This document shows positions 33,394-54,992 of a stretch of DNA of 64,000 bases, one piece after another (the first letter of the stretch is position 1; each line of letters opens with the position of its first letter). The notes under the pieces were generated by a model. That model had not been told where the DNA came from and made no database searches. It was given only the letters and a program-made list of their open reading frames with translations. Origin of the DNA: Methylonatrum kenyense (GTDB lineage: Bacteria; Pseudomonadota; Gammaproteobacteria; Nitrococcales; Aquisalimonadaceae). Position numbers and translations under genes: made by a program. The DNA lies in contig NZ_JALPKO010000001.1 of the NCBI RefSeq assembly GCF_023195885.1, positions 62,001-126,000 of the forward strand. Reading direction: 5' to 3'.

Positions 33394-34038
33394 TCAGTTC
33401 CACTCACCCTCGGCCCCGGCACGATCCAGATACCGGCCTTCCAAAGTAATGAACGCCTGCCCGAAAACGGCGACGCCACGATAGAATCGTGCCGACCCGG
33501 CCGCTTTCAGGTCTTTCATCAAATCACCCATCCAACTTGCAATATGTCGCTCGTAGAATTCCCGCTGCCAGGCCATGTCGACCTCTGCATCCTCGATCGC
33601 CAGGGCCATGGCTTCGCACACTGCGGCAGCGTGATCCTCCGGCTCACTGGTATCGTCGTGACGACTGATACCGAGCATGGCGAGATCACGCCGCAAGTCG
33701 ATCAGTGCACGATCCATCAATTGCCCTGACCCGTAATAAGAAGCATAGGGCGTGATTTCGCCTCCGCCCACCCCGATGAAGACATCCTGGTATTCGCGAC
33801 GCAGGGCCTCCGGCTCGGCCACGCGGGCCACCTCCAGCAGCGCCGCCCAGGCACCGCCCATGCCGTCATCCTCGGCGGCCGCATCCATCGGTACTTCCAG
33901 GCCCCGCAGCAATTCAAGCCGCTGCGCATCGGGGGCCGCAGCGAGCAGCGCTGCGAGCAGACGCCAGACCCCGGCGCGCAGGGCATTGTCACCCATATCC
34001 TCTGCCGTGACGGCCTGTGCTCCGTTGCCCGTACTCAT
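33394..34038 (-). CDS. TorD/DmsD family molecular chaperone
   Basis: A 214-residue, mostly helical protein of the TorD family. It shows the family block EALRREYQDVFIGVGGGEITPYASYYGSGQLM, close to the Y/F-x-x-L-F-x-G ... P-x-x-S pattern, and the C-terminal EREFYERHIASWMGDLMKDL. Members bind the Tat signal of molybdoenzymes and aid cofactor insertion. Its likely client is the formate dehydrogenase alpha subunit. The start overlaps the upstream 4Fe-4S gene stop as ATGA. Confidence 0.9.
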   Translation of the reverse strand: MSTGNGAQAVTAEDMGDNALRAGVWRLLAALLAAAPDAQRLELLRGLEVPMDAAAEDDGMGGAWAALLEVARVAEPEALRREYQDVFIGVGGGEITPYASYYGSGQLMDRALIDLRRDLAMLGISRHDDTSEPEDHAAAVCEAMALAIEDAEVDMAWQREFYERHIASWMGDLMKDLKAAGSARFYRGVAVFGQAFITLEGRYLDRAGAEGEWN

Positions 34039-35714
34039 GAGGATTTCATCCCGTACACCGTGGGTTTGCTAACGTCGGTCATGTCATCGGAGAAAAGATC
34101 CGTGACCCTGCAGTCGCCGCACATCTTCAGCCGCCTCAGGCTGGCTTCGGACTGGAACATGTGATGATCACCGAGCCGTTCGGTCATGCGTTCAATGACA
34201 CTGGCGGTGGCGAACGGCGTACCGCAGACGATGCAATTGAACGGCGCTTCCTCGTTGGCCACCTGTGGCTTGCGGCGCACCTCCCAATCAAAAAGGTAGC
34301 GGGCTTCGAGCGTGATCGCATCCTCCGGACAGGCGGTCTGGCACAAGCCGCACTGGACGCAGAGATCTTCGGTGAAGTTGAGCTGCGGCTTGTCGCCAGC
34401 ATCGGAAAGGGCGTTTGTCGGACAGACCTGGGGGCAGGCCATGCACAGGGTGCAGGCATTACTGTCGACCAGTACCTGACCGAACGGCGCACCCGCCACG
34501 AGCCCGACGCTATCCGGAACATCGGCGGCCTGCTCACGCAGGTGGTCGATGGCGAGACGCAGGCTGCCACGTTTGTCGTTGAAAGTGTCGAAGCGGGCGA
34601 CGTCCGCAACCGCCGGCCCGGCCAGCGAGTCGATGCCTGAGAGGGTATCGGGCGTGAGCGCGGAAAGCTGGGTCGGCTGGAAGCCGAGCGCCGCGAGGAT
34701 CGGCTCGACAAAACGCTTCTGGTCGGCAAGCTCGCGTTGCACCGATGCAGCCAGTTCGTCTGTCTCCAGCCAGGTCACGGCAGTTGCACCGTAGGCCAGG
34801 CTGGCCAGCCAGATATCCATGCCGATGGCACCGACCTCGGCGACGGGCACGGGCAAAACCGAATCCGGCAGGTTTTCCGCCGCCGCCTCCAGTGCCTGCA
34901 GGCCGGCCTCTTCGTCGACGAAAAGGAGTACCGGCTTGTCGCCGCCCGCCTCGCGGTAGGCGTCCAGCAGCATACGAATACGGCGCAACTGGTCCTTCGG
35001 CGTGGGATAGGCGTAAATCATTGCGCCAGTGGGACAGGCGGCTGCACAGCTGCCCCCGCCCTGGCACCAGTAAGGATCCACCTCGACACGTTCACCCAGC
35101 GAGACAATCGCCCCGGTCGGGCAGGCATCCAGGCAACGGGTGCAGCCATTGAGCCCGCTATCACCGTGGGCGCAGATGTCCGGGTTATAGTTGAAGTACC
35201 GGGGCTTTTCGAAATCACCGGTCATCTCGGGGATTTCCGCCAGCGCCCGCTCCAGGCGCGCGGAGTCGTCACGCGGTGCGTAATAGCCGAAGGGAAGCGT
35301 TTCGACGTCGATCAACGGCTCGGCGTGCAGATCCAGCACCAGGTCAAAGGCCCGGGTTTCCCCGCCCAACAACTCCGCCAGCCACATCGGCTCGCCCTGC
35401 TGCCGCTGGATTCGGACGTCGAAATGGCCGAGGTGCCCGGAAAGCTGGACCGGATGCGCGCTGACCAGTGACATCCGCTCCGGCACGTCCACCGCCGTGC
35501 CATCCGAGACGAGCACGGTGCATTGCAATCCGGAGGGCAGCCGCGACAGCACCGTGGCGACCGCCGCCCCGGGTCCCAGCAGCAACAGGGAACCCGCCGA
35601 GCGGTACTCGACTACCGCTGTCGCCTCGTTATCCAGCTGCATCACGGCAGCCAGCGCGGCGTCGCGGGCGGCAACGGCAGGAACCGGCAGGCCATGGTGT
35701 GTCTGCTCAGACAT
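34035..35714 (-). CDS. Large 4Fe-4S protein of formate dehydrogenase locus
   Basis: A 559-residue iron-sulfur protein. Two pairs of ferredoxin motifs are visible: CTRCLDACPTGAIV and CQGGGSCAAACPTGAM in the middle, and CTLCMACPQVCPTNAL and CVQCGLCQTACPEDAI near the C-terminus. A further two-Cys motif CIVCGTPF and a CGDC lie at the end. The N-terminal ~180 residues are cluster-free. Such proteins accompany DUF3305/DUF3306 in Cys-type formate dehydrogenase operons and are thought to be accessory electron carriers or cofactor-handling factors. The ATG at 35714 overlaps the DUF3306 stop by 8 bases. Confidence 0.88.
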   Translation of the reverse strand: MSEQTHHGLPVPAVAARDAALAAVMQLDNEATAVVEYRSAGSLLLLGPGAAVATVLSRLPSGLQCTVLVSDGTAVDVPERMSLVSAHPVQLSGHLGHFDVRIQRQQGEPMWLAELLGGETRAFDLVLDLHAEPLIDVETLPFGYYAPRDDSARLERALAEIPEMTGDFEKPRYFNYNPDICAHGDSGLNGCTRCLDACPTGAIVSLGERVEVDPYWCQGGGSCAAACPTGAMIYAYPTPKDQLRRIRMLLDAYREAGGDKPVLLFVDEEAGLQALEAAAENLPDSVLPVPVAEVGAIGMDIWLASLAYGATAVTWLETDELAASVQRELADQKRFVEPILAALGFQPTQLSALTPDTLSGIDSLAGPAVADVARFDTFNDKRGSLRLAIDHLREQAADVPDSVGLVAGAPFGQVLVDSNACTLCMACPQVCPTNALSDAGDKPQLNFTEDLCVQCGLCQTACPEDAITLEARYLFDWEVRRKPQVANEEAPFNCIVCGTPFATASVIERMTERLGDHHMFQSEASLRRLKMCGDCRVTDLFSDDMTDVSKPTVYGMKSS

Positions 35715-36381
35715 CGTGCTTGTCGTGCTCCTCTTCGGTTTCGGCGACTTCGGCGGCTTCGGCATCCCTCATGCTTTGCTCGTGACGGTGCCAGCGGCTC
35801 TCGGCCAGTTCGTCCCGCGGCACGGCATCAGTGGACCGGCTGTGCCTGGTTTCACGCCAGATGCGTGCCTCGGCCTCCTCCGGGCTTATTTCCTCACCCT
35901 GCCCGAGCAGGCTGTCGCGAAGGCGTTTGGCTTCCCGCGCGATGGAGGCTTTCAGGTCGTGCGGGATGACGTCGCCCAACGGCTCGAACGTGGTGTAGTC
36001 CTCGGCGTACTCGGCGCAGAGGCAAACCTTGTTGAACTTGGCGGAATGAAAAACCCGGGTCAGGGCCTTCATGCGCAAGGCAGGCGAGATGTTCTTTGCC
36101 ATGAACATGCTCAGGTCGGAATCGGGCATCAGGCTATCCAGCGCCGGCATGTCATCATCGGTAAGTTCCGAGAAACGCTTCCCGGTGCGCGGGTCGATTC
36201 GTTCATCCGGGTCGTCTTCGACTGCTTCCGCAGCCACTTCATCCCGCGCCAACTCCGGGCTGCTGGGCAAGGTCTCGGACGTCTCCGCCTGCGCCTGCTG
36301 CTTGCGGCGGGACCACCGCGACAGCAGGCCGACGGCGCCGCCTTCCTGCTGCTCGAACTGATCAGTGGGCCGGGTGCTCAT
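35707..36381 (-). CDS. DUF3306 family protein
   Basis: A 224-residue acidic protein. The N-terminal basic-aromatic RWSRRKQQ and the DUF3306 hallmark ISPALRMKALTRVFHSAKFNKVC are present. The C-terminal half is highly charged (Glu/Arg/Asp-rich) and likely disordered. The function is unknown; it is a constant partner of DUF3305 and the 4Fe-4S protein in formate dehydrogenase loci. The start overlaps the DUF3305 stop as ATGA. Confidence 0.87.
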   Translation of the reverse strand: MSTRPTDQFEQQEGGAVGLLSRWSRRKQQAQAETSETLPSSPELARDEVAAEAVEDDPDERIDPRTGKRFSELTDDDMPALDSLMPDSDLSMFMAKNISPALRMKALTRVFHSAKFNKVCLCAEYAEDYTTFEPLGDVIPHDLKASIAREAKRLRDSLLGQGEEISPEEAEARIWRETRHSRSTDAVPRDELAESRWHRHEQSMRDAEAAEVAETEEEHDKHDV

Positions 36382-36923
36382 TTCGGATCCTCCGCGAAGT
36401 CTCCAACCTCGGCATCAAACAAAGCCTTGCTGCGCTTCTTGCCCCGCGGCTTCCGCCGTTTCGGAACATGGTGATCAAGGATGAACCCCTCGACCCAGCG
36501 GTAGACCTCGGGCGGCATCGGCACAGTGTGCACGGTATCGTCCGGCGAGCGCAGATCCGTGGCATCGGTGTTCTGCGCCTCGTCCAGGCTGAGGGTAACG
36601 CTTCGCGGCTGGAACACCTGATCGGACGACCGGACGATGACATAAACGCCGGGCTGCTCGCCCTGCAGGTTGTATGCGTAGTCGTCGGTGTGGGCGGGAT
36701 GCAGGCGGCAGTCGAAGCCGGTCCAGAGAAAGAGATCGCCATCCGACCCCGAGCGCATCGGGCGCCGCTCCGGCGTTGACGAGGCAAACTGCGCCCCGAC
36801 CACCACGCCCAAAGCCTTCCAGCGCCGGTTCGCGGGATCGGTACCGAGGTGGCCAACAACCACCCCGACCGGAAGGCGGGTCCGGTCAGTCAGCTCGGTC
36901 GTGTGCGGTGTCAACTCCGCCAC
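36378..36923 (-). CDS. DUF3305 family protein
   Basis: A 181-residue protein. The block LPVGVVVGHLGTDPANRRWKALGVV and the segment PGVYVIVRSSDQVFQPRSVTLSLDEA are typical of DUF3305. I chose GTG 36923 because it has CGGAGGGG 9 bases upstream; the frame extends to 37022 but without such a site and with an atypical N-terminus. It is the first gene of the formate dehydrogenase unit. The function is unknown. Confidence 0.87.
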   Translation of the reverse strand: MAELTPHTTELTDRTRLPVGVVVGHLGTDPANRRWKALGVVVGAQFASSTPERRPMRSGSDGDLFLWTGFDCRLHPAHTDDYAYNLQGEQPGVYVIVRSSDQVFQPRSVTLSLDEAQNTDATDLRSPDDTVHTVPMPPEVYRWVEGFILDHHVPKRRKPRGKKRSKALFDAEVGDFAEDPK

Positions 36924-37109
36924 AGAACTAGCCCCTCCGAAATTTGTTATGCAGCCAGTCTGCGCCAGCTGTCTCCAAGTGTCACGCGTGCATGACTCAT
37001 ACCAGCGCAGTTGTATCGGCAAGGCAACGGGAATTCAGACAATTGGAAGTCAAACACCAACCCCCGACCCAGCGGAACCGTGTCGAAATGCCACAAAACG
37101 GGGGCAACT

Positions 37110-37334: not shown

Positions 37335-38345
37335 ATGACTGCTGCGAGTGCACTTCCACAAACCCTGGTTGACCGCTTCGGCCGGCGGGTTAGTTACGTG
37401 CGCCTGTCGGTTACCGACCGCTGCGATTTTCGCTGCGTTTATTGCATGAGTGAGGACATGACCTTCCTGCCGCGCTCAGAGATCCTGTCATTGGAAGAAC
37501 TGGCCGCGGTTGGTCAGGCGTTTGCGGAACTGGGCGTCGACAAGATCCGGATCACCGGCGGCGAACCGCTGGTACGGCATAACGTCATCGAACTGTTCGA
37601 GACCCTCGGCGCTCTGGACGGCCTGAAGGAACTGACGCTTACGACCAACGGATCGCAGCTCGATCGCATGGCGGTCCCGCTCCGCCGGGCTGGTGTGCGG
37701 CGTATCAACATCAGCCTGGACAGCCTTGATCCGGAGCGCTTCCGCAACATTACCCGGGTCGGCAATCTGAACAAGGTACTGGCCGGTATCGACGCCGCCT
37801 GCGAAGCCGGTTTCGAACGGATCAAGATCAATACCGTGGCAATGAAGAATCGCAATGACGACGAGATCCTGCCGCTAGTGGATTTCGTCGTCGCCCGCGG
37901 CATGGACATCAGTTTTATCGAGGAAATGCCGCTTGGCGAAATCGACGACCACGACCGGGCCGAGGTCTACATGTCGTCCGACGAGGTCGCCGAGGTCATC
38001 CGGCAACGCCACGAGCTGGTGCCGACGACGGAGACCACGGGTGGGCCGTCACGCTACTTCCGGATTCCGGAAACGGGCACCCGCGTCGGCTTCATTTCGC
38101 CCCATAGCCACAACTTCTGTGAGAGTTGCAACCGGGTGCGGGTTACCACCGAGGGCCGGTTGCTGCTGTGCCTGGGCCAGGAACATTCGGTGGATCTGCG
38201 CGAGATTTTGCGCGAACAGCCGGGCGACATGCTGGCGCTGAAGCGCGCCATCGTGGATTCCATGGCCATCAAGCCGCGCGGCCACGACTTCAACCTGCAG
38301 GCAAAGCCGGTAATCTTCCGCCACATGAGCGTCACCGGCGGTTAG
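37335..38345 (+). CDS. moaA: GTP 3',8-cyclase MoaA, first step of Moco synthesis
   Basis: A 336-residue radical SAM enzyme that turns GTP into the cyclic nucleotide precursor of cPMP. The N-terminal cluster is in [14 protein letters not shown] (CxxxCxxC), the SAM motif is ITGGEPLVR, and the second cluster's Cys are in [22 protein letters not shown]. The C-terminal Gly-Gly (SVTGG) needed for activity is present. The length matches E. coli MoaA. Its partner MoaC is not in this window. The TAG stop runs straight into repeat copy H. Its proximity to the formate dehydrogenase operon fits cofactor supply. Confidence 0.97.
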
Positions 38346-38695: not shown

Positions 38696-39973
38696 ATGAC
38701 TGACAGTAACCGCCCAGTCCAACACGCTCCATCCTGTGATGACGACTACCAGCCAGACACGCTGTCGGTGGACGCCGCCTGGGACCGCATTCTCCAGGAC
38801 ATCACGCCAGTTCGCGGTGTGGAACGCCTGCCGACCCGCGCCGCGCTCGGCCGGATCCTGGCCGAGGATATCCATTCCACGGTCAACGTGCCCAACAGCG
38901 ACAACTCGGCAATGGACGGCTATGCGCTGCGCAGCGGCGACCTGCCGACCGAAGGCGATACCCGCCTGCGGGTGGTCGGGACCGTACTGGCAGGCCACCC
39001 CTACGATCAGCCGCTGCTGCCAGGCGAATGTCTGCGCATCATGACCGGCGCGCCGATGCCGGCCGGCGCCGATACCGTGATTCCGCAGGAGAAGGTCGAG
39101 CGCCAGGATGACCTGATTCGCATCGACAGTGCGCACCGCGCCGGCCAGGACGTGCGCGCCGCCGGCGAAGATCTGGCCATCGGCGACCGGGTACTCGCCG
39201 CGGGTAGCCGCGTCGGCGTAGCAGAACTCGGCATGCTGGGCTCACTCGGCCTGGTGGAAGTCAGTTGCCGACGGCGAATCCGGGTGGCGTATTTCTCCAC
39301 CGGGGACGAGCTGCGTTCAGCCGGATCCGCCCTCCGCCCCGGCGATGTGTACGACAGTAACCGCTACACCCTGCATGCGGTACTCACGGAACTGGGCGTC
39401 GAGGCCACCGATATGGGCGTGGTTCCGGATGAGCCTGCCGCCATGGAGCAGGCCTTCGCCGACGCAGCCGGCTTCGCCGATGCAATCCTGACTTCCGGCG
39501 GCGTCTCGGTGGGCGAGGCCGACTTCGTCAAGGACATCATGCGCCGACTCGGCGAGGTCGGCTTCTGGAAAATCGCCATGCGCCCGGGGCGGCCACTGGC
39601 CTTCGGCAAGATCGGGCGGGCCCGCTTTTTCGGCATGCCCGGTAATCCGGTCTCGGTGGTCGCCACCTGGTGCCAGTTCGTCAAGCCGGCACTCAGGCAT
39701 TTAATGGGTCAAACGATCCGCAGGCCACTCAGCTTCCGCGTGCGTGCCGCCCACGACCTGCGCAAGCGCCGCGGCCGTACCGAATTCCAGCGCGGTATTC
39801 TGGAACGCAGCGCCGACGGTGAACTGCTGGTTCGCACCACAGGTGGCCAGGGCTCCGGAATCCTCAGTTCGGTCAGCCTGGCAAACTGCTTCATCGTGCT
39901 GCCGCATGACGCCGATTCTGCTGCCGCAGGCGAGTTTGTCGAGGTGCAGCCGTTCCACGGCGTCATGGGCTGA
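38696..39973 (+). CDS. moeA: Molybdopterin molybdotransferase MoeA
   Basis: A 425-residue protein that inserts molybdate into molybdopterin (after adenylation by MogA/MoaB). The four-domain MoeA layout is visible. Conserved stretches are NVPNSDNSAMDGYALR (domain I), MTGAPMPAGADTVIPQE, the MPT-binding FSTGDEL, the PGDVYDSNRY loop and the SGGVSVGEADFVKDIMR and MRPGRPLAFGKIG...FGMPGNPVSVV blocks. The length matches E. coli MoeA. It shares the neighbourhood with moaA and mobA. Confidence 0.97.
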   Translation: MTDSNRPVQHAPSCDDDYQPDTLSVDAAWDRILQDITPVRGVERLPTRAALGRILAEDIHSTVNVPNSDNSAMDGYALRSGDLPTEGDTRLRVVGTVLAGHPYDQPLLPGECLRIMTGAPMPAGADTVIPQEKVERQDDLIRIDSAHRAGQDVRAAGEDLAIGDRVLAAGSRVGVAELGMLGSLGLVEVSCRRRIRVAYFSTGDELRSAGSALRPGDVYDSNRYTLHAVLTELGVEATDMGVVPDEPAAMEQAFADAAGFADAILTSGGVSVGEADFVKDIMRRLGEVGFWKIAMRPGRPLAFGKIGRARFFGMPGNPVSVVATWCQFVKPALRHLMGQTIRRPLSFRVRAAHDLRKRRGRTEFQRGILERSADGELLVRTTGGQGSGILSSVSLANCFIVLPHDADSAAAGEFVEVQPFHGVMG

Positions 39974-40205
39974 CCGCAGACCGGCTGCCAACAAGCCAAG
40001 AATAGGCGCTCGAAACGCATACTTGGATAATCACTGGCTATACTGTCGCGAGACGGTGACAGGTGGTAGGCGTGCTGCCTTGGAGCACTGCAGGCCACGA
40101 TGAATGACGGCCCAACGCCTTCCGCCTTGTCGGAATCCGCTGGACCGCCCTTTTCGCAGACGGCCGGCGCCACCTGGGCGCTGGTCCGGATTGGGGGGTC
40201 AGGTC

Positions 40206-40913
40206 ATGGATACGTTTTTTTCGCGAGCATGCATCCTACTGCTCGGCCTCTTGCTGATGGCCTGTGGCAGCGATCAACCCGATGCCGCAGAGCCGGAAAC
40301 GGCAGCTGAAGCCAGCGTAACCGTTGATGCTGGAACGGTCACGGATCAGTTGCTGCTGTTCATGGATCAGCAGATCAACACCTTCGAAAAGATCATCGAT
40401 GCGGTAGACGGTGTCGACAGTCAGGCCGCGGCCAATGACGTCGCGGCACGATTCCGCGACGAATTCACTCCCGAATTCATTGATATCTACGAGACCTTCT
40501 TCGACTGGCTGGAGACCCATCTGCTGGGCATGGACGAGGCGCAACAGATCGAACTCGAGGCCTCATTCGAGCAGGCGGCCCTGGACGGCCGTCTCGGACC
40601 GGTGATCGAGACGGAAAGCCGGTTCGAAAGGACGCTCATGCGCGGGGAACAGCAGATGGCAATGCTTTCCGCGCGTGATCCGCAACTGATGGTGCCGATC
40701 GAGCAGGCCATGATGGAACTGGGGCAACAACTCGAGCCCCTGATGCTCGACGAACGCATGCTCGCGCTGGAGCGCATGATGGACGGCGGTCCGCCGAGCG
40801 GTGCGCCACCAGTCGGATCGCCGGCCTGGTGCCAGCAGATGGCGAACACCCCGCAGGCACAGTGGACCCCGAACGACGGCTTCGCCTTCGCCAGCCATTG
40901 CATCGGGGGCTGA
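40206..40913 (+). CDS. Lipoprotein with C-terminal DUF3012 domain
   Basis: A 235-residue lipoprotein. The signal MDTFFSRACILLLGLLLMACGSD has the lipobox LMAC. The middle is helical and very acidic. The C-terminal ~30 residues (GSPAWCQQMANTPQAQWTPNDGFAFASHCI) carry the two Cys and the Trp-Thr pattern of DUF3012. The function is unknown. I chose ATG 40206 because it starts the signal directly; the frame extends 34 codons upstream. The gene ends 17 bases before the convergent E1 gene. Confidence 0.82.
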   Translation: MDTFFSRACILLLGLLLMACGSDQPDAAEPETAAEASVTVDAGTVTDQLLLFMDQQINTFEKIIDAVDGVDSQAAANDVAARFRDEFTPEFIDIYETFFDWLETHLLGMDEAQQIELEASFEQAALDGRLGPVIETESRFERTLMRGEQQMAMLSARDPQLMVPIEQAMMELGQQLEPLMLDERMLALERMMDGGPPSGAPPVGSPAWCQQMANTPQAQWTPNDGFAFASHCIGG

Positions 40914-40930: not shown

Positions 40931-42376
40931 CTAGCCGCGACAGAACTGCTGATAGTCCACGTAACCGGGGAAGCTCCTGCCATCGCCGCAGTAGGCGCAT
41001 TCCGGATCACGCTCCATCCGCATTTCCTGGAAACGTCCCGCCAGGGCATCGTAGAACAGCAGGCGGCCGACCAATGGCTCACCCACATCCAGCAGCAGCT
41101 TGACCGTCTCGACCGCCTGCAGCAGCCCGATCACTCCGGGTAATACGCCAAGCACACCGGCTTCGGAGCAACTGGGTGCCAGCTCCGGCGGCGGCGGCTC
41201 GGGGAACAGGCAACGGTAGCAGGGCCCGGGCGCGGGCTCGCGGCCCGGCCAGAACACGCTCACCTGACCTTCGAAGCGGAACACAGCGCCGTGCACGTTT
41301 GGCAGACGATGCTTGATGCAGGCGTCGTTGATGAGATACCGCGTGGCAAAATTGTCCGTCCCGTCGATTACCAGATCGTAGTCCGGGAAAATGCCGTCGA
41401 CCGTGTCGCTATCCAGGTATTCCCGATGCAGTTCAACGCGGACATCCGGGTTCAGCGCATGGATAGCCTGGCGTGCCGATTCCGCCTTCGGCATCCCGAC
41501 GCGGTCGTCGGCGTGGATGATCTGCCGCTGCAGATTGCTGCGATCAACCACATCGTGGTCGACAATACCGAGCGTGCCGACCCCGGCCGCGGCCAGATAC
41601 AGGGCGGCCGGCGAGCCCAGGCCGCCGGCACCGATCAGGAGCACCCGGCTATCGGCAAGTTTCAGTTGCCCGACCTCGCCCACCTCGGGCATCAGCAAAT
41701 GCCGCGAGTAGCGATCGCGTGCCGTGGCATCCAGCATGCGAGGGACTTCGAACGGTAGACCGTCGTTCTTCCAGCGGTTAAAGCCGCCGCTCACCGAGCT
41801 GACTTCCGCATAACCCAGCCGCAGTAAATCCTCCGCGGCGAACAGGGATCGCGTACCGCCGCCACAGAGCACCATCAGGGGGGTGTTCAAATCCGGCACC
41901 CGGTCCTCGATCCGCAACTCCAGGAAACTGCGGCCCAGTCGTACAGCATCGTCCGGACTGCCGGCAGCCACTTCATCCTGGTCCCGCACATCGAGCAGCA
42001 CTGCGCCCTGCTGCTGCCGGCGGCAGGCCTCTTCCGGCTCGATTTCCGGGATCGACGCGCGCAACGCCGACAGCCGCTGTTCCCGTGCCGAACCGGCACC
42101 GCCGCCGGCCACCGCCGGAATGATTGACACCACCTGCCCCGGTACCAGGCGCCGCCGCAGGGCATCCGGACCCTGCAGACGCTCATTATCGACAAACAGG
42201 TTGACGAAGGGTCGCAGTTCACCCTCCGGCGTCAGAATCCGCTGTACCAGGCCCAGATGATGCTCGGCGAGGCGCTCAAGCAACTGCTCCACGCTGTCGG
42301 CGTCCACCGCCAGCTGGTCACGGCCATCGACAAAACCGCGCAACGGGGTCGGAATGCGGACAATCACGCTACTCAC
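40931..42376 (-). CDS. Ubiquitin-like / rhodanese / E1 (MoeB-ThiF) fusion protein
   Basis: A 481-residue fusion with three domains. Residues 1-93 are a MoaD/ThiS-type ubiquitin-like domain ending in IIPAVAGGG, so the Gly-Gly that would be adenylated is internal. Residues about 105-205 are a rhodanese with active-site CGGGTRS (Cys171). Residues about 220-481 are an E1-like adenylyltransferase with GAGGLGS, the Cys in LAPSCSEAGVLGVLPG, and a zinc site (CYRC and CAYC). The start is GTG 42376, overlapping the JAMM gene stop as GTGA. The Gly-Gly resembles the C-terminus of CysO, the sulfur carrier of Mycobacterium, whose partners are a JAMM peptidase and an E1-rhodanese protein. A function in thiocarboxylate formation is likely; the acceptor is unknown. 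Confidence 0.88.
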   Translation of the reverse strand: MSSVIVRIPTPLRGFVDGRDQLAVDADSVEQLLERLAEHHLGLVQRILTPEGELRPFVNLFVDNERLQGPDALRRRLVPGQVVSIIPAVAGGGAGSAREQRLSALRASIPEIEPEEACRRQQQGAVLLDVRDQDEVAAGSPDDAVRLGRSFLELRIEDRVPDLNTPLMVLCGGGTRSLFAAEDLLRLGYAEVSSVSGGFNRWKNDGLPFEVPRMLDATARDRYSRHLLMPEVGEVGQLKLADSRVLLIGAGGLGSPAALYLAAAGVGTLGIVDHDVVDRSNLQRQIIHADDRVGMPKAESARQAIHALNPDVRVELHREYLDSDTVDGIFPDYDLVIDGTDNFATRYLINDACIKHRLPNVHGAVFRFEGQVSVFWPGREPAPGPCYRCLFPEPPPPELAPSCSEAGVLGVLPGVIGLLQAVETVKLLLDVGEPLVGRLLFYDALAGRFQEMRMERDPECAYCGDGRSFPGYVDYQQFCRG

Positions 42377-42777
42377 GTCTGCAGGGTCTCCTCCTGAAAT
42401 CCATCCGCCGCGGACCACCAGGCCCGAAGTTGCGGGGTCTCGGCGGCAGGCCAACCAACGATCAGGTAATGCCAGTCCGGCCAGGCCTGCGCCAGGTCCG
42501 TCGCCGATGGCACCGCGTCCGCGGCAGGATGGCTATGCCAGACGCCGATGACCTGCTGCTTGCGGCCCGAGGCCTCTGCCTGAATGCGCAGATAACGCTC
42601 CGGATCGATCAGATAATGCCGCCTCGGCTCCGCTGCCTCGTTCGCCACGTGCAGCACCTCGTCGACCCGATGGACCTCGACACCAAGCAGAAAACCGCAC
42701 GCCTCCTCCGGAAACCGCTCCCGCGCTTCATCAAGCATGGATTGGCGCAGCGAGGCGCTGACACAAACCGTTAACAT
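42373..42777 (-). CDS. JAMM/M67 family metallopeptidase (Mec+-like)
   Basis: A 134-residue zinc peptidase of the JAB1/MPN family. The JAMM motif is complete: the Glu in EEACGFLLG, then HSHPAADAVPSATD, which has H-x-H-x7-S-x2-D. In bacteria such proteins remove or process ubiquitin-like sulfur carriers; Mec+ of Mycobacterium releases cysteine from CysO-cysteine. Its stop overlaps the start of the ubiquitin-like/E1 fusion, so translation is coupled and it is the likely protease for it. It diverges from the Asp-box gene at 42990. Confidence 0.9.
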   Translation of the reverse strand: MLTVCVSASLRQSMLDEARERFPEEACGFLLGVEVHRVDEVLHVANEAAEPRRHYLIDPERYLRIQAEASGRKQQVIGVWHSHPAADAVPSATDLAQAWPDWHYLIVGWPAAETPQLRAWWSAADGFQEETLQT

Positions 42778-42847: not shown

Positions 42848-42972
42848 TTAAGGAAACAAGGTGCGGTGCCGGTTCGGTAGCCATGGCTACCGGGCCGGTG
42901 GCGCAACGCCGCCAGGGGCCAAAACCGGCCGAGGTCTTGGGCAAGCGTGCGAATAACTCAGTGTTTCCTTAA
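42848..42972. repeat. Dispersed palindromic repeat, copy F
   Basis: The left end TTAAGGAAACAAGG and right end CTCAGTGTTTCCTTAA are inverted. Inside are the hairpin GGTTCGGTAGCCATGGCTACC and the block GGTGGCGCAACGCCGCCAGG with GGCCAAAACCGGCC, both shared with copy D. The central GAGACCGGT core is missing. It occupies most of the 212-base gap 42778-42989, between the divergent JAMM and Asp-box genes; the right end lies only 17 bases before the latter start, next to its ribosome binding site. Confidence 0.85.
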
Positions 42973-42989: not shown

Positions 42990-44120
42990 ATGGCGCAGTC
43001 GGCCAGACGCAGGGATGCAATGGGAGCTGTCCTGCTGGTGGGTACGCAGAAGGGTCTGTTCCGGCTGGAATCCGATCCGGCACGCGGACACTGGGAGCTA
43101 CAGGGGCCGCTGATTGCCGGCTACGAGATCCTGCATGCATGGCTCGACCCGCGGCAACCAAAGCGCGGCTTCGCGGCGACATCGCATACGATCTGGGGCG
43201 TGCACATCTACCGGACCGACGATGCCGGCCGCAGCTGGCAATCGCTGACCGCGACGCCATGCCACACCGGGGTCCGCAGTGACGAGAGCTTGCAGAGAAT
43301 CTGGTACCTGGCACCGGCGACGGCTGATCGACCGGATACCCTGTTTGCCGGCATCGACCCGGCTGGCGTGTTCCGCAGCGATGACGCCGGTCGCAGTTGG
43401 CAGTCGCTTTCGGGGCTGAACGAACACCCAAGCCGCGATACCTGGGAACCCGCACGGGGCGGCTTCTCCGCCCACTCCATTGTCCAGCCGGAGCGATGTC
43501 CGCAGCGGCTCTATGCAGCGATTTCGGCCGGTGGTGCCTATCGCAGCGATGATGGCGGACGACACTGGCACCCGATCAACAGCGGCGTGCGGGCATCGAA
43601 CCTGCCGCAGGAGCAGGTCGCAAGCGGCCATAACATCCACCGCCTGCTGGTCCACCCCGCCAACCCGGACCGCCTTTACCGGCAATGCTACAGTGGCGTC
43701 TACCGCAGCGATGACGGTGGCGAGCACTGGACCGAGATCAGCAGTGGCCTGCCCAGTGATTTCGGCTACGCCATCACCTCGCCCGCCGGCGAACCGGACA
43801 CGGTGTACGTGCTGCCGATCGACAGCAATCACCTGCGCACCACGCCCGACGGGCGTCTGCGGGTCTATCGTTCCCGCGATGCCGGTGCCAGCTGGCAGGC
43901 CCTGACCCACGGCCTGCCGCAGCGGCACGTCTACACCACGGTGCTGCGCGAGGCGATGACCGTGGACGACCATGTCCAGACCGGCGTTTATTTCGGCACC
44001 GCCAGCGGCCACCTGTTTGCCAGCCCCGATGCCGGCGACAGCTGGCGGTGCTTGGCCGCATTCCTGCCGCGAATCCTCTGTGTCAGCGCACACCGGGCGG
44101 ATCACGATGACCACAGTTGA
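42990..44120 (+). CDS. Asp-box (BNR/sialidase-like) repeat beta-propeller protein
   Basis: A 376-residue protein with at least six Asp-box motifs (SxDxGxxW): TDDAGRSW, SDDAGRSW, SDDGGRHW, SDDGGEHW, SRDAGASW and SPDAGDSW. It is thus a six- or seven-bladed propeller of the type in sialidases, Vps10 and Hcf136. No signal peptide is seen, and sialidase catalytic residues are not obvious, so glycosidase activity is not supported. The start 42990 is supported by GGGAGG about 10 bases upstream. It overlaps the start of yqeC by 14 bases. The function is unknown. Confidence 0.87.
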   Translation: MAQSARRRDAMGAVLLVGTQKGLFRLESDPARGHWELQGPLIAGYEILHAWLDPRQPKRGFAATSHTIWGVHIYRTDDAGRSWQSLTATPCHTGVRSDESLQRIWYLAPATADRPDTLFAGIDPAGVFRSDDAGRSWQSLSGLNEHPSRDTWEPARGGFSAHSIVQPERCPQRLYAAISAGGAYRSDDGGRHWHPINSGVRASNLPQEQVASGHNIHRLLVHPANPDRLYRQCYSGVYRSDDGGEHWTEISSGLPSDFGYAITSPAGEPDTVYVLPIDSNHLRTTPDGRLRVYRSRDAGASWQALTHGLPQRHVYTTVLREAMTVDDHVQTGVYFGTASGHLFASPDAGDSWRCLAAFLPRILCVSAHRADHDDHS

Positions 44121-44880
44121 GAACAGGATACTATTGCGGGCGCTGGGTGCGGAGCAGGGCATCGTCAGCGTGGTGGGTGCCGGCGGCAAGAAGACCACCC
44201 TGTATCACCTGCTGGAGATCCATCCCGGCCGGGCTGCGGTCTCCGCCAGCACCTTCACCTACCTGTTTCCGAAGAGCCTGGCTGCAGAAACGCATGTGGC
44301 GGACGTCGCGCATTTGCGCAGTGATATCCCGGCCAGCACGGCCCGCAAGCTCGCCTTCGCCTGTCCTTCGTCCAAGCGTGGCCGTCTGGCCGGCCTGGAA
44401 GGACCGGATCTGCTGGCGATCCACCGCCGGGCGAAACTCGACCTCACCCTGCTCAAGTCGGATGGCGCTCGGGCGCGCTGGATCAAGGCGCCTGCCACCC
44501 ACGAACCCCTGATTCCGGACTGCGCCGATGCGGTCATCCTGGTGCAGTCGGTGGCCGCCATCGGCAAGCCCCTGGACGAGCGCATCGCGCACCGGCCGGA
44601 ACGTGTCAGCGCGGTTACCGGGCTGGCGCCGGGGGAGACCGTTAGACCGCGGGACCTGGCAGTGCTTTTCAGCCATCCCCAGGGCCTGATGAAAGGCGTT
44701 GGTGATCGTCCGGTGGTCCCGCTGCTGCACATGGTCGACGACCCGGAGCGCGAATACTGGGCGCGCGAAGTTGGCCGCGAGACCCTGGCCAGGGAACCCC
44801 GTTTCCCGCACGTGGTCCTGACCAGTGCGCGCCACGACCCGTACCTGGTAGCCGTCGTCGAGAGGAGTTCAAACCGATGA
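44107..44880 (+). CDS. yqeC: YqeC-like protein, selenium/Mo-hydroxylase accessory
   Basis: A 257-residue P-loop protein of the YqeC family: the Walker A-like VVGAGGKKTTLYHL is near the N-terminus, followed by STFTYLFPKS and LLKSDGARARWIKAP. The family is named as accessory to selenium-dependent molybdenum hydroxylases, but its reaction is not established. I chose ATG 44107, which overlaps the preceding gene; the frame extends upstream into that gene. No molybdenum hydroxylase or selenium gene is in the window. A 44-codon membrane protein gene overlaps the stop. Confidence 0.85.
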   Translation: MTTVENRILLRALGAEQGIVSVVGAGGKKTTLYHLLEIHPGRAAVSASTFTYLFPKSLAAETHVADVAHLRSDIPASTARKLAFACPSSKRGRLAGLEGPDLLAIHRRAKLDLTLLKSDGARARWIKAPATHEPLIPDCADAVILVQSVAAIGKPLDERIAHRPERVSAVTGLAPGETVRPRDLAVLFSHPQGLMKGVGDRPVVPLLHMVDDPEREYWAREVGRETLAREPRFPHVVLTSARHDPYLVAVVERSSNR

Positions 44881-45107: not shown

Positions 45108-47489
45108 GTGCAGCGTGTCCGGATCCTGGTCCAGTGCATCAAGATGGCGCCGCAACTTTTGCAGACGCGGCGATAACAGGCTGATCCGGCCTTCGGCCTG
45201 CTTCAGGGTCCGCGCCAGCAGCTCTCTTGCCTCGTCGCGCCGCCTGGAATCGCGCAGCACCGCAGCATAGCGAACCACCGTGTTGATGTGCTGCATGCTG
45301 TCCCAGCCCATGACCTCGGCCGTCTCGCGGCTGGCCGCCTGCAACAGCGATTCGGTTTCCGAGCCGGGCTTGCTCTCGGCCAGCAGGATCGCCAGTTCGG
45401 AGCGTGTCATGACGGTGTGGGGATGACGCTCCCCCAGCAGCCCCGCCCAGGTATCGAGATTGCGACGGTAAAGCCCCTCGGCTTCCGCGTAGCGCCCCTG
45501 TTCTCGAAGCAGATCGGCCAGATTGTTGATGCTGGTCGCGGTGGCCGTGTGGTCCGGCCCCACCACCTGTTCCCAGACATCGATGGCCTGCCGATACAGT
45601 GGCTCGGCGTCGTCGAATCGCCCCATCGCATCCAGCACACCAGCCAGGTTATGCAGACTGGAGGCCGTGTCGACATGCTCGTCACCGAGCGCCCGCTGGC
45701 GGATATCAAGGGCGCGCCGGAACAGCATCTCGGCGGCCTGAAACTGCTCGCGGGCATCGAGCACCGCACCCAGGTTGTGCGCACTGGCCGCGGTCGCCGG
45801 ATGATCCGGTCCGAAGGCCGTCTCGGCGATGCCCAGGGCGCGCTGATACAGCGCCTCGGCCTGCTCCAGATCCTGGCCGGCGTAGAGCAGGCCGGCGAGG
45901 CTGTCGAGACAAGCGGCCGTTTGCGGGTGACCACCACCGTAGTCGCGCTCGGACAGTTGCAAGGCACGCTGGTATAGCGGCCGCGCCTGATCCAGCCGGT
46001 TGTCGGCGCGCAGCACCGCCGCCAGGTTGACCAGGTGCGGAATCAGCTCCTGGTGCTGCTTGCCAAGGGTCGCTTCCCGACCGGCCAGCGCCGCCTGGTA
46101 ATGGGTGATCGCCTGCTCCATTTCACCCTGTTGCTCCAGCACCATGGCAAGGCGGTGACGGCATCGGCGGGCTTCAGGGGAGTCGGCACCGCCGCGCTGC
46201 CCGGCTGACTCAAACGCGGCGGCCAGCGCCGCCCGTGCGACATCCAGATCCCCGGACTGCAGTCGGCAGGCCCCTTCAAGTGCATCCAGGCTGGCCCGTG
46301 CCGCATCCTCGTTCACGCCCGGCAACTGCCGCGCCTGATCAAGCAGCGGCAGCAGCTGTTCGGCTTCGGCCAGTTGCCAGAGGGCATCGAGCAACTCGCA
46401 CACCAGCGCAGCGCGATCCGCTGCCGACTGCGACCAGGAGGCAATCACCTGCCGGTAGAACTTCAGCAGCTCGTCACCACCGCCCCAGCGCCACCAGATC
46501 TCGAGCAGAAAATCGCGCCATTCCGGCTGCAACAGGCGACGCAACACCTCGTGGCCGGAGAGCTGCTGGGCCAGTGCCGGCCAGTCGCCGGCCTGCTGCA
46601 ACAACCACAGGCCATCGACCAGCGCCTCGTCTCCGCCGGACTCCAGATACAGGCCGGCAAGTTGCTGTTGCGCCCGCTGCAGGTCCGATCCCGCGGCGAG
46701 ATACTGCTTGCGCACCATGTCCCGGAATTCCGGGCCGGCAAGCGACAGCTCCTGGCCCGACTCGAAACAGCACTGTGTCACCGGGTCCAGCTCAGGTTCC
46801 GCGATCCCGTCGCGCAGCATTTCCAGCAGCGGTCGCGGCAGCGCCCGACGTGCCACGGCAAGCGCCCGCAGCGCTACGGGATCACAAGCAGCCGACAAGT
46901 CCGCGGGCGCCTCCCCCGGCTCCGGCCCGGTAATGGTCCAGCCTCGGTGACGCAGCAGCTCGATCACCGCCGGATCGAGGCAGCTTGCGACCACGCGCAG
47001 ATTGTCCGGCACCCAGGATGGCAGCCAGTCGAGACTATCCTCGACCGCCGCACCATGCAGCGCATCGAGTCGATCCAGGACCAGGATCGCGCGGCCCCGG
47101 GCCGCGAGTCGGGCCAGCCAGTTGGGCAGCAGCTCCCGCCGCGCGGCGGGGTCCACCGGGATGGTCTCGCGCAGCTCGCAGTGCTGACGAATGAAGCCCA
47201 GCAGGCGATACAGCAGATGCTCGCAGTCCCGGCTTTCGCCGGTGCACCCAACGTGATGCAGAAAGACGGGCGTGGTCGCATGGGAAGCGACATAACGCTC
47301 CAACCAGCGGGCGATTCGCCGGGACGCACCTTGCCCGCCAGCAAGCACCAGAGGTGCGGCCCGCTGACTGGCATGTCGGTTGAGCTCGCGATCCGTTCCC
47401 TGGTCGGCACCTTGACGCAACCAGCGTGCAAACGCGGCGTGATCCGCTGCCGCCTGCTCCAGCATCCGTGAGGTCTCGCTAACCGTCAT
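45105..47489 (-). CDS. TPR protein with degenerate STAND-type ATPase domain
   Basis: A 794-residue protein. The first ~160 residues resemble the NTPase of NPHP3/TANC-like STAND proteins: PLVLAGGQGASRRIARWLERY where a P-loop belongs, FLHHVGCTGES, the Walker B AILVLDRLDAL and LDWLPSWVPDNLRVVAS. But the P-loop GKS/T is absent (GASRR instead). A helical middle (200-430) follows. From about 430 onward there are about seven kinesin-light-chain-type TPRs (AITHYQAALAGREATLG and similar units with repeated G-x-x-H/HP). It overlaps mobA as ATGA, so it is co-translated. The function is unknown; likely a scaffold. Confidence 0.8.
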   Translation of the reverse strand: MTVSETSRMLEQAAADHAAFARWLRQGADQGTDRELNRHASQRAAPLVLAGGQGASRRIARWLERYVASHATTPVFLHHVGCTGESRDCEHLLYRLLGFIRQHCELRETIPVDPAARRELLPNWLARLAARGRAILVLDRLDALHGAAVEDSLDWLPSWVPDNLRVVASCLDPAVIELLRHRGWTITGPEPGEAPADLSAACDPVALRALAVARRALPRPLLEMLRDGIAEPELDPVTQCCFESGQELSLAGPEFRDMVRKQYLAAGSDLQRAQQQLAGLYLESGGDEALVDGLWLLQQAGDWPALAQQLSGHEVLRRLLQPEWRDFLLEIWWRWGGGDELLKFYRQVIASWSQSAADRAALVCELLDALWQLAEAEQLLPLLDQARQLPGVNEDAARASLDALEGACRLQSGDLDVARAALAAAFESAGQRGGADSPEARRCRHRLAMVLEQQGEMEQAITHYQAALAGREATLGKQHQELIPHLVNLAAVLRADNRLDQARPLYQRALQLSERDYGGGHPQTAACLDSLAGLLYAGQDLEQAEALYQRALGIAETAFGPDHPATAASAHNLGAVLDAREQFQAAEMLFRRALDIRQRALGDEHVDTASSLHNLAGVLDAMGRFDDAEPLYRQAIDVWEQVVGPDHTATATSINNLADLLREQGRYAEAEGLYRRNLDTWAGLLGERHPHTVMTRSELAILLAESKPGSETESLLQAASRETAEVMGWDSMQHINTVVRYAAVLRDSRRRDEARELLARTLKQAEGRISLLSPRLQKLRRHLDALDQDPDTLH

Positions 47490-48118
47490 GCGCGATCCGC
47501 TCCCGATTCTTCGTTGTGCAAGCGATGTTCCAGTGCATCCCGCTCCTCCGGCGTGTTCACGTTGATAAAGGCCTCCGGACAGTCACTGAAATCCGCAATC
47601 GCCATCCTGTGCCGACCAAACCAGCGATCGATCTTGCGCTCTCCAGCCGCCAGGTAGGCCTCGAGGTCGCCGAGCAGCCGCACCGGCAACAAGGCAAACA
47701 CCGGTTGCAGCCGTCCCGCACTCTCGACCACGGCCAGGTCCCCTGCGTCGGCCTGCAGGGCAAGCTGCAGACGCGCCACCAGATCCCGCGGGACAAGCGG
47801 CGAATCGCAGGGTGCCGTCACCACCCAGGGTGTGGTTGCGGCGGCCAGGCCGCTGGCCATGCCGGCCAGAGGTCCCGGAAACTCGGGCATGCGATCCGCC
47901 ACCACCGGCGCACCGAAGCCGGCGTAGTCGGCCTCGTTGCGATTGGCGTTGATCAGCAGTTCCCGCACCTGCGGCCGAAGCCGCGCCAGGACATGGCCGA
48001 CCATGGGCTGGCCAGCGATGGCAATCAGCCCCTTGTCCTGTCCGCCCATGCGGCTTGCCCGGCCACCGGCAAGCACCAGGCCGGTCACCGCAAAATCACT
48101 GTCCCGCTCTGAAACCAC
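47486..48118 (-). CDS. mobA: Molybdenum cofactor guanylyltransferase MobA
   Basis: A 210-residue nucleotidyltransferase that adds GMP to Mo-molybdopterin to make MGD, as needed by the formate dehydrogenase. The N-terminal LVLAGGRASRMGGQDKGL (GxxG-x-R-M-G-x-x-K) is the GTP-binding signature; APCDSPLVPRDL carries the metal-binding Asp, and FINVNTPEE is at the C-terminus. I chose GTG 48118, which has GGGGGAG four bases upstream; an in-frame start 12 codons earlier lacks this. Its stop overlaps the TPR start. Confidence 0.94.
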   Translation of the reverse strand: MVSERDSDFAVTGLVLAGGRASRMGGQDKGLIAIAGQPMVGHVLARLRPQVRELLINANRNEADYAGFGAPVVADRMPEFPGPLAGMASGLAAATTPWVVTAPCDSPLVPRDLVARLQLALQADAGDLAVVESAGRLQPVFALLPVRLLGDLEAYLAAGERKIDRWFGRHRMAIADFSDCPEAFINVNTPEERDALEHRLHNEESGADRA

Positions 48119-48226
48119 GATACTCCCCCAGGGAGGCGCCCCTTTTTGGTTCAACCAGTCCCTTGATTCGGAACCCGGACTGGTACATTTTGTCCCATAT
48201 ATGACTTTCGTCGAGGTACTGACCTC

Positions 48227-54746: not shown

Positions 54747-54992
54747 TCAGCCGCCGCTGACTGGCGGCAACAGCACCAGCGGGCGGCTTGTGTCGATGGT
54801 CTGGTCCTGGCGGACCAGGCTATCCCCCTGGGCGCAGGCGACGCGCCGCAAGTGCGGCGCCAGGGCCGGATGCCGCCGAGCCAATTGATCCAGAACGGCG
54901 GCCACCGTTGGCGGTTCCGGCAATGCATCAAGCTGCAACTGGCGGTCGCCCGCTGCCTGCTGCAGTACACCGAAGAGCTCCACAGTCAGCAT
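54747..54992 (-). CDS. moaD: Molybdopterin synthase small subunit MoaD
   Basis: An 81-residue ubiquitin-like sulfur carrier that ends in the essential Gly-Gly (LLPPVSGG). It is adenylated by a MoeB-like enzyme and then sulfurated. The start has AGGAG six bases upstream. It is the first gene of the moaD-moaE-moaB unit. Note that a second ubiquitin-like domain ending in Gly-Gly exists in the fusion at 40931-42376, whose E1 domain could also serve this MoaD. Confidence 0.93.
   Translation of the reverse strand: MLTVELFGVLQQAAGDRQLQLDALPEPPTVAAVLDQLARRHPALAPHLRRVACAQGDSLVRQDQTIDTSRPLVLLPPVSGG

What the first reader, a model, noticed from the sequence alone, without database searches (positions are those of the whole stretch)
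40931..42777. CysO-like ubiquitin domain fused to rhodanese and E1, coupled with a JAMM protease
The sequence shows a JAMM peptidase with a complete zinc motif overlapping (GTGA) a single protein that carries a ubiquitin-like domain ending in VAGGG, a rhodanese (CGGGTRS) and an E1-like adenylyltransferase. In Mycobacterium the CysO route uses the same four parts as separate proteins: carrier CysO, JAMM peptidase Mec+, and the E1-rhodanese MoeZ. Here carrier and activators are one chain in the order carrier-rhodanese-E1, with the Gly-Gly internal. To act as a carrier, the Gly-Gly would have to be freed by cleavage, and the coupled JAMM is the obvious protease. The window also has a normal MoaD (54747), so this domain is not simply the Moco carrier. 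It may be a compact self-processing sulfur-transfer system for cysteine, tRNA or another acceptor.
Basis: partly seen in the sequence, partly recalled or inferred. Interest (0 to 1): 0.72.

Follow-up and report, generated by a model that had tools for sequence, protein, structure and literature searches.

The report
Sulfur carrier fused to its activator
A bacterial gene joins a small ubiquitin-like sulfur-carrier protein to the two enzymes that load it, next to a protease that probably cuts the carrier free, and in this group of bacteria the pair sits with molybdenum-cofactor and formate dehydrogenase genes while the usual sulfur-inserting protein, FdhD, is not found.

Summary
In detail: a JAMM peptidase gene (42373-42777, minus) overlaps by GTGA a 481-residue carrier-rhodanese-E1 fusion (40931-42376, minus). 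The fusion recurs in 18 sequences in hand (window plus 17 loci). All 18 keep the internal Ala-Gly-Gly, with synonymous codon changes and no shared internal start codon. In 13 related loci the carrier is separate; 10 of these carry 1-11 residues after Gly-Gly, like known protease-dependent 'capped' carriers. Carrier and JAMM genes co-occur almost one to one. The fusion is best read as a capped carrier whose cap is its own activating enzyme. A second lineage with a BNR-YqeC-carrier-JAMM-E1 operon also has FdhA and no FdhD, though a cysteine-synthase-like gene lies 4.5 kb away. I infer, untested, that the module supplies sulfur to this molybdoenzyme. Known parts; the architecture and FDH link appear new.

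The parts
42373..42777 (-). JAMM/Prok-JAB peptidase, 134 aa; E25, H81, H83, S91, D94
   Evidence: AF2 model pLDDT 94.5, best VIA match PfJAMM1 Z 19.9, 1.5 A, 124 aligned
40931..42376 (-). carrier-rhodanese-E1 fusion, 481 aa, GTG start overlapping the JAMM stop
   Evidence: AF2 model pLDDT 88.5, pTM 0.67
42098..42376 (-). ThiS/MoaD/SAMP1-like beta-grasp carrier domain (residues 1-93)
   Evidence: Pfam ThiS 27.4 bits; NCBIfam SAMP1 38.9 bits, below its cut-off 60
42098..42106 (-). internal Gly91-Gly92-Gly93, presumed cleavage region; residues 89-95 have pLDDT under 50
41765..42037 (-). rhodanese domain; loop CGGGTRS with Cys171
   Evidence: Cys171 invariant in the 11 fused proteins kept after 85% dereplication
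40997..41710 (-). MoeB/ThiF E1 domain; Asp341, Lys297, Arg284, Cys403, Cys386/389/460/463 invariant in the 11 dereplicated fused proteins
   Evidence: residue roles recalled from MoeB; NCBIfam PRK08762 619.5 bits (cut-off 449) over residues 98-480
42990..44120 (+). BNR/sortilin-type repeat protein, divergent from JAMM-fusion, conserved partner
44107..44880 (+). YqeC (TIGR03172, 132 bits, cut-off 73.05), overlaps the BNR gene by 14 bases
38696..39973 (+). MoeA
37335..38345 (+). MoaA
30192..33077 (-). formate dehydrogenase FdhA with the motif RICHSTTVAG
   Evidence: 1407.7 bits to 9vap_A FdhA; (best NCBIfam model Fdh-alpha 470.5, below its cut-off 666)
33394..37022 (-). TorD-like chaperone, 4Fe-4S protein, DUF3306, DUF3305 of the FDH operon
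47486..48154 (-). MobA-like nucleotidyltransferase
54747..54992 (-). separate MoaD-like carrier, uncapped (ends GG)

Best explanation
The fusion is a precursor of a sulfur-carrier protein whose C-terminal cap is its own activating enzyme. Steps, with my probabilities: (1) the neighbouring JAMM enzyme cuts after Ala-Gly-Gly, giving a free 92-93-residue carrier and a free rhodanese-E1 in equal amounts (inferred, 0.65); (2) the E1 domain adenylates the new C-terminal glycine and the rhodanese Cys171 persulfide turns it into a thiocarboxylate, as in MoeZ/Uba4 (inferred from conserved residues and kinship, 0.8 given step 1); (3) the acceptor depends on the lineage: cysteine synthase where cysM is linked, and in the window's clade the molybdenum-cofactor/formate-dehydrogenase pathway together with YqeC and the BNR protein (inferred, 0.36 for the window; I lowered it from 0.4 on finding a cysteine-synthase-like gene 4.5 kb from the module in the second lineage). 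The confidence below is for steps 1 and 2; the rivals on the acceptor are partly compatible with them.
For: AGG in 18 of 18 fused proteins while the next residues vary; both Gly positions show all four synonymous codons. No internal start is shared by the 18 fused genes near the rhodanese start, so free rhodanese-E1 would need proteolysis. Of 13 separate-carrier loci, 10 have tails of 1-11 residues after AGG, the 'capped' state said to need a protease in published systems (PMC6006322 passages). Among loci with N-terminal-rhodanese E1 and at least 1.4 kb upstream: 25 carrier+JAMM, 1 carrier only, 1 JAMM only, 46 neither; other E1 loci 8/0/0/22. Fused and separate states interchange: at least 4 changes among the 27 carrier-linked rows of the E1 tree. 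Another domain order, carrier-E1-rhodanese, is fused in L061 and L077 (both Pfam-scanned), with L062-L064 alike in length; all five keep AGG and have JAMM adjacent. AF2 shows the Gly-Gly segment as a low-confidence linker. For step 3.
Against: No cleavage or thiocarboxylate has been observed. Low pLDDT does not prove accessibility. In G155 and G266 the carrier is uncapped, yet JAMM is present, so JAMM may act mainly on carrier adducts. L028 has a capped carrier and no JAMM found nearby, and L031 a JAMM without a carrier. The JAMM and carrier profiles were built from part of the same loci, so scores are partly circular; adjacency is not. Carrier-JAMM-E1 co-occurrence could reflect one functional unit without saying which bond is cut.
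Confidence: 0.6

Rival explanations
1. In the window's clade the module replaces FdhD: the freed carrier thiocarboxylate, with YqeC and the BNR protein, delivers the terminal sulfido ligand to the Mo-bis-MGD of formate dehydrogenase (or sulfur to Moco generally). Compatible with the best explanation; it specifies the acceptor.
For: BNR and YqeC flank JAMM-fusion in 7 of 7 clade members; no BNR or YqeC match in the other 74 of 80 genome-contig loci, some of them short. FdhD found in 0 of 7 clade genomes. Lineage f157 (G155, G266, both 100% complete): operon BNR-YqeC-carrier-JAMM-rhodanese-E1, FdhA present, no FdhD. FdhD in 0 of 9 BNR-YqeC-linked against 5 of 7 cysM-linked genomes tested, Fisher p 0.005, not phylogenetically independent. 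In 11 FdhD-bearing FDH islands read, none shows YqeC, BNR, carrier or JAMM; FdhD lies beside MoaA in 6, beside DUF3305 in 4. FdhA of the two lineages branch separately among FdhD-bearing ones and keep the RICHSTTVAG motif.
Against: Only two lineages. FdhD is also not found in 5 of 30 FdhA-positive genomes without the module (G093, G123, G177, G211, G214); some are incomplete and the G177 protein lacks the motif. The cysM-linked G011, G164 and the unlinked-by-contig G028 lack FdhD too, but also lack FdhA. FdhA was read in only 4 of the 7 clade members. A cysteine-synthase-like gene lies 4.5 kb from the module on the opposite strand in both f157 genomes, and module and FDH are on different contigs there. 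Sulfide plus a reductant can sulfurate FDH in vitro without a chaperone (PMC12140954 passages), so FdhD-less genomes may need no replacement. YqeC deletion had no clear phenotype in C. difficile (PMC11448449 passages). Whole genomes were not searched for YqeC.
Confidence: 0.27
2. The module makes cysteine as in the CysO/MoeZ/Mec+ route: carrier thiocarboxylate plus a cysteine synthase gives a carrier-cysteine adduct, from which JAMM releases cysteine.
For: cysM within 3 kb on the same strand in 10 of 17 other fused loci and 7 of 9 separate-carrier loci with N-terminal-rhodanese E1; the window genome's sole OAS-sulfhydrylase-type protein is CysM; in G155/G266 JAMM accompanies an uncapped carrier, fitting a Mec+-like role, and a CysK-like gene lies 4.5 kb away.
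Against: No cysM near the pair in the window, L008, L011, L012 or L015; L009, L010 and L014 end on short contigs. The window's CysM is of E. coli type, unlike the linked enzymes. CysE and NIR_SIR-domain proteins are present, so an ordinary route probably exists.
Confidence: 0.27
3. The fusion is never cut; the carrier domain is a fixed regulatory or docking domain of the E1, and JAMM serves another substrate.
For: No protease activity shown; published ThiF proteins with N-terminal Ub-like domains exist (PMC1779556 passages).
Against: AGG in 18 of 18 fused proteins and at the ends of the separate carriers; JAMM is linked to carriers, not to carrier-less E1 of this type.
Confidence: 0.12
4. It is simply the E1 of molybdopterin synthase (MoeB role) with an extra domain.
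For: Best NCBIfam model is PRK08762 'MoeB', 619.5 bits; Moco genes nearby; mycobacterial MoeZR serves both MoaD and CysO (PMC3227635 abstract).
Against: A separate MoeB-type E1 on C27 (PRK05690 306.9 bits, cut-off 266) and a separate uncapped MoaD-like carrier exist; does not explain carrier or JAMM. A dual role is not excluded.
Confidence: 0.15
5. A ubiquitin-like protein-conjugation system with JAMM as deconjugase.
For: JAMM's best VIA matches are archaeal PfJAMM1 and its SAMP2 complex; carrier resembles SAMP1, below cut-off; conjugation was proposed for JAB-E1 operons (PMC1779556 section 16).
Against: The E1 carries a rhodanese; links are to sulfur and Moco genes; no conjugate known.
Confidence: 0.08

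Closest known systems
CysO / MoeZ / Mec+ of Mycobacterium
   Same: Carrier, E1 with rhodanese and JAMM enzyme, often with a cysM; 10 of 17 other fused loci have the cysteine synthase adjacent.
   Different: Carrier and activator are one chain; the rhodanese precedes the E1; the window has no linked cysM; CysO is a separate protein (Mec+ role recalled).
QbsE/QbsD, PdtH/PdtG and PtmS2/PtmS1 capped carriers
   Same: A Gly-Gly followed by extra residues and a JAMM protease; most separate-carrier relatives here have such short caps.
   Different: The caps named in PMC6006322 are one or two residues; here the cap is a 388-residue enzyme, the carrier's own activator; no siderophore or thioacid genes were seen beside it.
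MoaX of M. tuberculosis (MoaD-MoaE fusion cut between Gly82 and Ser83; PMC4326299)
   Same: Carrier fused through an internal Gly-Gly, cleavage needed for function.
   Different: Fused to the acceptor, not to the activator; its protease is unidentified, here a JAMM gene is coupled.
Iyer 2006 operon classes 4b/4c (JAB, E1-rhodanese, with or without ThiS/MoaD and cysteine synthase)
   Same: Same gene set; class 4b lists Aehr and Noce (I take these, from memory, for Alkalilimnicola and Nitrosococcus). The paper also proposes in general terms that JAB frees fused ThiS/MoaD.
   Different: Carrier-rhodanese-E1 fusion, YqeC-BNR link and FDH/FdhD pattern are not in the passages I read.
FdhD/FdsC, formate dehydrogenase sulfurtransferase-chaperone
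   Same: Same genomic setting: FDH islands with MoaA, and in some MoeA and MobA.
   Different: No PF02634 match in this genome; the possible functional replacement is inferred only.

Membership tests
JAMM/Prok-JAB metallopeptidase | Glu plus HxHx7SxxD zinc motif and JAB profile | tested here: met
ThiS/MoaD-type sulfur carrier | beta-grasp domain ending in Gly-Gly | tested here: met
   Pfam ThiS 27.4 over 22.5; AGG 18 of 18
ThiS/MoaD-type sulfur carrier | free C-terminal Gly-Gly that becomes a thiocarboxylate | not testable with these tools
   Gly-Gly is internal in the gene product; needs mass spectrometry
MoeB/MoeZ-type E1 with rhodanese | ThiF domain with conserved Asp, Zn cysteines and rhodanese cysteine | tested here: met
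   PRK08762 model 619.5 over 449
CysO/Mec+ cysteine pathway | linked CysM acceptor gene | tested here: not met
   no cysM-profile match in the window; only an unlinked E. coli-type CysM. Met in 10 of 17 other fused loci
Capped carrier with JAMM protease (QbsE/QbsD type) | residues after Gly-Gly and adjacent JAMM | tested here: met
   cap is the rhodanese-E1 itself in fused forms
Capped carrier with JAMM protease (QbsE/QbsD type) | JAMM removes the cap | not testable with these tools
   needs a cleavage assay
FdhD-type FDH sulfuration factor | FdhD-NarQ domain | tested here: not met
   no PF02634 match in the genome; only the function could be analogous
E1-E2-JAB conjugation systems | E2-like protein in the operon | not tested
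   no E2 search was run; no E2 family appeared among the window neighbours scanned

The most novel reading that the evidence does not exclude
A ubiquitin-like sulfur carrier, made as a fusion with its own E1 and freed by JAMM, works with YqeC and a BNR-repeat protein as an FdhD-independent route for putting the essential sulfido ligand (or another sulfur) on the molybdenum cofactor of formate dehydrogenase; in at least two lineages this module has displaced FdhD.
Probability: 0.22. Interest if true: 0.82.

Novelty: new variant of a known kind. Interest (0 to 1): 0.6.

Why it matters
If cleavage occurs, this is a sulfur carrier capped by its own activator, giving a built-in 1:1 ratio and holding the carrier inactive until JAMM acts; it makes the general 2006 proposal that JAMM frees fused carriers directly testable in a two-gene system. 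If the FDH link is right, it would show a second way to mature formate dehydrogenase, an enzyme sought for CO2 reduction and usually dependent on FdhD, and would give YqeC, a protein of uncertain role, a concrete pathway.

Tried and rejected
Considered and set aside: assembly or frameshift artefact (18 sequences from many assemblies share the junction); internal translation start giving free rhodanese-E1 (in-frame ATG/GTG/TTG codons within 30 codons after Gly-Gly are scattered, absent in L008, L009 and L016, and only one each in L099 and L101 has a Shine-Dalgarno-like stretch by a crude test); the fusion as the only MoeB of the genome (a second MoeB-type E1 exists); the C27 ThiS as the same system (ordinary ThiS, TIGR01683 72.4 bits); the weak second Prok-JAB hit on C12 (27.6 bits; not matched by my JAMM profile).

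The JAMM class search gave a gap between 162 and 104 bits that coincides exactly with the 7 of 274 genomes holding carrier-linked rhodanese-E1, but 6 of those 7 sequences were rows of the query profile, so I do not use the gap as evidence. The FdhA tree (quick method, no bootstrap) left out 4 of the 34 FdhA-positive genomes (no locus returned). L097 (window itself) and L100 (same DNA as L014) were dropped from counts; one search skipped 8 loci (stops, wrong frame or too short); alignment A1 holds the window, 47 of the 74 references, and 9 of the 13 separate carriers.

Not done for lack of caps: genome-wide searches for YqeC, SelD or BNR proteins; a second scan of genome contigs. Paper searches (listings only): searches showed no title or abstract on the carrier-rhodanese-E1 architecture (one search listed 15 of 111); none on FDH without FdhD linked to JAMM or YqeC, but PMC11076775 holds YqeC, FdhD and formate dehydrogenase together and was not read. 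These cover open-licence PMC text only.
Full report
WHAT IS THERE. On the minus strand, a 134-residue JAMM peptidase (42373-42777) overlaps by GTGA a 481-residue protein (40931-42376) made of a ThiS/MoaD-like domain (residues 1-93), a rhodanese (about 114-204) and a MoeB/ThiF E1 (about 223-460). Residues 98-480 match the NCBIfam rhodanese-E1 'MoeB' model PRK08762 at 619.5 bits. All three domains pass Pfam cut-offs. The JAMM motif is complete and invariant in 24 of 24 aligned proteins, and its AlphaFold model (pLDDT 94.5) matches Pyrococcus JAMM1, free and bound to SAMP2, at Z 19.9 and 19.7. The fusion model's top PDB matches are MoeB, ThiF and Uba4.

THE GENOME. The genome (2.95 Mb, 29 contigs, 100% complete) gives two ThiF-family matches: the fusion and a 255-residue MoeB-type E1 on C27, near a gene that looks like PrmC (the PrmC name is from my reading of the sequence). 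It gives three ThiS-family matches: the fusion, the MoaD-like protein at 54747 ending in GG, and an ordinary ThiS. Of the three, only the fusion carrier is not free to begin with.

HOW COMMON. In 274 gammaproteobacterial genomes drawn, 5 have the full fusion in one frame (4 genera), and each of the 5 also has a second E1 match. From genome contigs (80 loci) and these genomes I have 18 fused sequences: the window plus L008-L016, L018-L020, L036, L058, L098, L099, L101. After 85% dereplication 11 remain.

GLY-GLY. AGG is present in 18 of 18; the following residues vary. The two Gly codons show all four synonymous forms (8/5/3/2 and 11/4/2/1), so the protein sequence, not the DNA, is held. The window has an extra Gly (VAGGG). 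AlphaFold gives residues 89-95 pLDDT below 50 in an otherwise mostly confident model, which fits, but does not prove, an exposed linker.

SEPARATE CARRIERS. In 13 loci the carrier is its own gene: L022, L024, L028, L034, L035, L040, L046, L059, L066, L068, L075, L114, L116. Ten end in AGG plus 1 to 11 residues (AE, AG, VF, LS, AA, AP, ATR, S, and two longer tails); L075, L114 and L116 end at GG. Published capped carriers (GG-MV, GG-C) need a protease, QbsD being the biochemical example (PMC6006322, passages). L013 (fused) groups with L022/L024/L040/L046 (separate, two-residue caps) at 100/99 support, so fused and capped forms interchange between close relatives. On the E1 tree the fused/separate state needs at least 4 changes among 27 carrier-linked rows; starred branches force at least 2 changes for the fused label. 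A different order, carrier-E1-rhodanese, is fused in L061 and L077 (Pfam); L062-L064 look alike; all five have AGG and an adjacent JAMM.

CARRIER AND JAMM GO TOGETHER. Among loci whose E1 has the N-terminal rhodanese and at least 1.4 kb of upstream sequence: 25 have carrier and JAMM, 1 carrier only (L028), 1 JAMM only (L031), 46 neither; for other E1 loci 8, 0, 0 and 22 (near relatives are not independent). The natural reading is that the fusion is a capped carrier whose cap is its own activator. Precedent for cutting a fused carrier exists: M. tuberculosis MoaX is cut between Gly82 and Ser83 and this is needed for activity, by an unidentified protease (PMC4326299, abstract and Discussion). 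Iyer et al. 2006 proposed in general terms that JAB may free fused ThiS/MoaD and described JAB + E1-rhodanese operons, with or without cysteine synthase (PMC1779556, passages and section 16). Against a pure uncapping role: in G155 and G266 JAMM accompanies an uncapped carrier, which resembles mycobacterial Mec+, recalled to release cysteine from a CysO adduct.

TWO GENOMIC SETTINGS. (A) A cysteine synthase gene lies within 3 kb on the same strand in 10 of 17 other fused loci and 7 of 9 separate-carrier loci of the N-terminal-rhodanese type. (B) In the window, L008-L012 and L015 the pair is instead flanked by a divergent BNR-repeat gene and YqeC, inside an island with MobA and a TPR protein on one side and, where the contig reaches, MoeA, MoaA, DUF3305, DUF3306, 4Fe-4S protein, TorD and FdhA on the other. 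FdhA itself was read in the window, L008, L011 and L012; L015 reaches TorD; L009 and L010 stop shortly after the fusion. BNR and YqeC matches occur in exactly these 6 of the 80 genome-contig loci. In family f157 (G155, G266) BNR, YqeC, carrier, JAMM and rhodanese-E1 lie in one direction in both and form one tight operon in G266. There a CysK-like gene (264 bits, below the cysK cut-off 351) lies about 4.5 kb from the E1 on the opposite strand, so the two settings are not perfectly separate. YqeC passes its NCBIfam cut-off in the window and in G266 (132 and 157.5 bits, cut-off 73.05).

FdhD IS NOT FOUND. The window's FdhA scores 1407.7 bits to solved FdhA 9vap and has the motif RICHSTTVAG, whose Cys I take, from memory, for the metal ligand. 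FdhD, the FDH sulfurtransferase whose loss abolishes activity in studied systems (PMC13197769 and PMC12140954, passages), gives no match in the window genome nor in the six genomes of L008-L012 and L015 (completeness of these six not told). In the 274 genomes, FdhA occurs in 34 and FdhD in 74; 26 of the 34 have FdhD. Of the 4 FdhA genomes with carrier-JAMM-E1, 3 lack FdhD (window, G155, G266); the fourth (G061) is cysM-linked and has FdhD. Of the 30 without the module, 5 lack FdhD (G093, G123, G177, G211, G214). Fisher p is 0.033, or 0.009 for the BNR-YqeC type, without correction for kinship. FdhD lies within 20 kb of FdhA on one contig in 13 of the 26; of 11 such islands read, chosen for that reason, none shows YqeC, BNR, carrier or JAMM matches, and 6 have MoaA-FdhD side by side where the window has MoaA-MoeA and then the module. 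FdhA of the window clade and of f157 branch separately among FdhD-bearing ones; the quick tree needs five separate FdhD absences, two of them with the module. Against it: sulfide and a reductant can sulfurate FDH in vitro without a chaperone (PMC12140954), so no replacement may be needed. That is suggestive, not proof.

MECHANISM. JAMM cut after Gly-Gly (0.65); thiocarboxylation by E1 and rhodanese (0.8 given the cut); acceptor in this clade Moco/FDH (0.36), cysteine (0.27), other or several. The E1 may also serve MoaD, as MoeZR serves both MoaD and CysO (PMC3227635, abstract). YqeC is a poor guide by itself: its deletion had no clear phenotype in C. difficile (PMC11448449, passages).

VERDICT. 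Observation right; interpretation right in outline for the family; for this organism the cysteine reading is somewhat less likely than a Moco/formate-dehydrogenase role. New variant of a known kind.

Noticed in passing
L066:4836-5951: Nitrospirales MAG gene fusing a ThiS-like carrier (ends YMGGG) to the N-terminus of a cysteine synthase (Pfam ThiS 31.3 bits plus PALP 276.9), with E1 genes and JAMM on the same locus: a carrier capped by its likely acceptor.
   Followed up: partly
G064:C221, G240:C63, G205:C118, G172:C3, G080:C1 and others: By eye, at least 25 gammaproteobacterial genomes have a JAMM (about 60-105 bits) directly beside an E1-only (MoeB-type) match; whether a carrier lies nearby was not checked. 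A separate, widespread JAMM-E1 pair.
   Followed up: no
window 40940-40942: A C-terminal cysteine (Cys479, FC near the end) is invariant in the 11 dereplicated fused proteins and is the majority residue in the rhodanese-E1 alignment; role unknown.
   Followed up: no
window 42848-42972: The 212-base divergent gap between JAMM and the BNR gene holds a palindrome (22-nt arms 42862-42883/42884-42905, 77%) inside perfect 11-nt inverted ends TTAAGGAAACA/TGTTTCCTTAA: looks like a small palindromic repeat element.
   Followed up: partly
window 40203-40913: DUF3012 protein between MoeA and the fusion, conserved in L008 and L009.
   Followed up: no
G093, G123, G214 (and G177, which lacks the active-site motif): FdhA-bearing genomes with neither FdhD nor the module: either incomplete or yet another maturation route.
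   Followed up: partly
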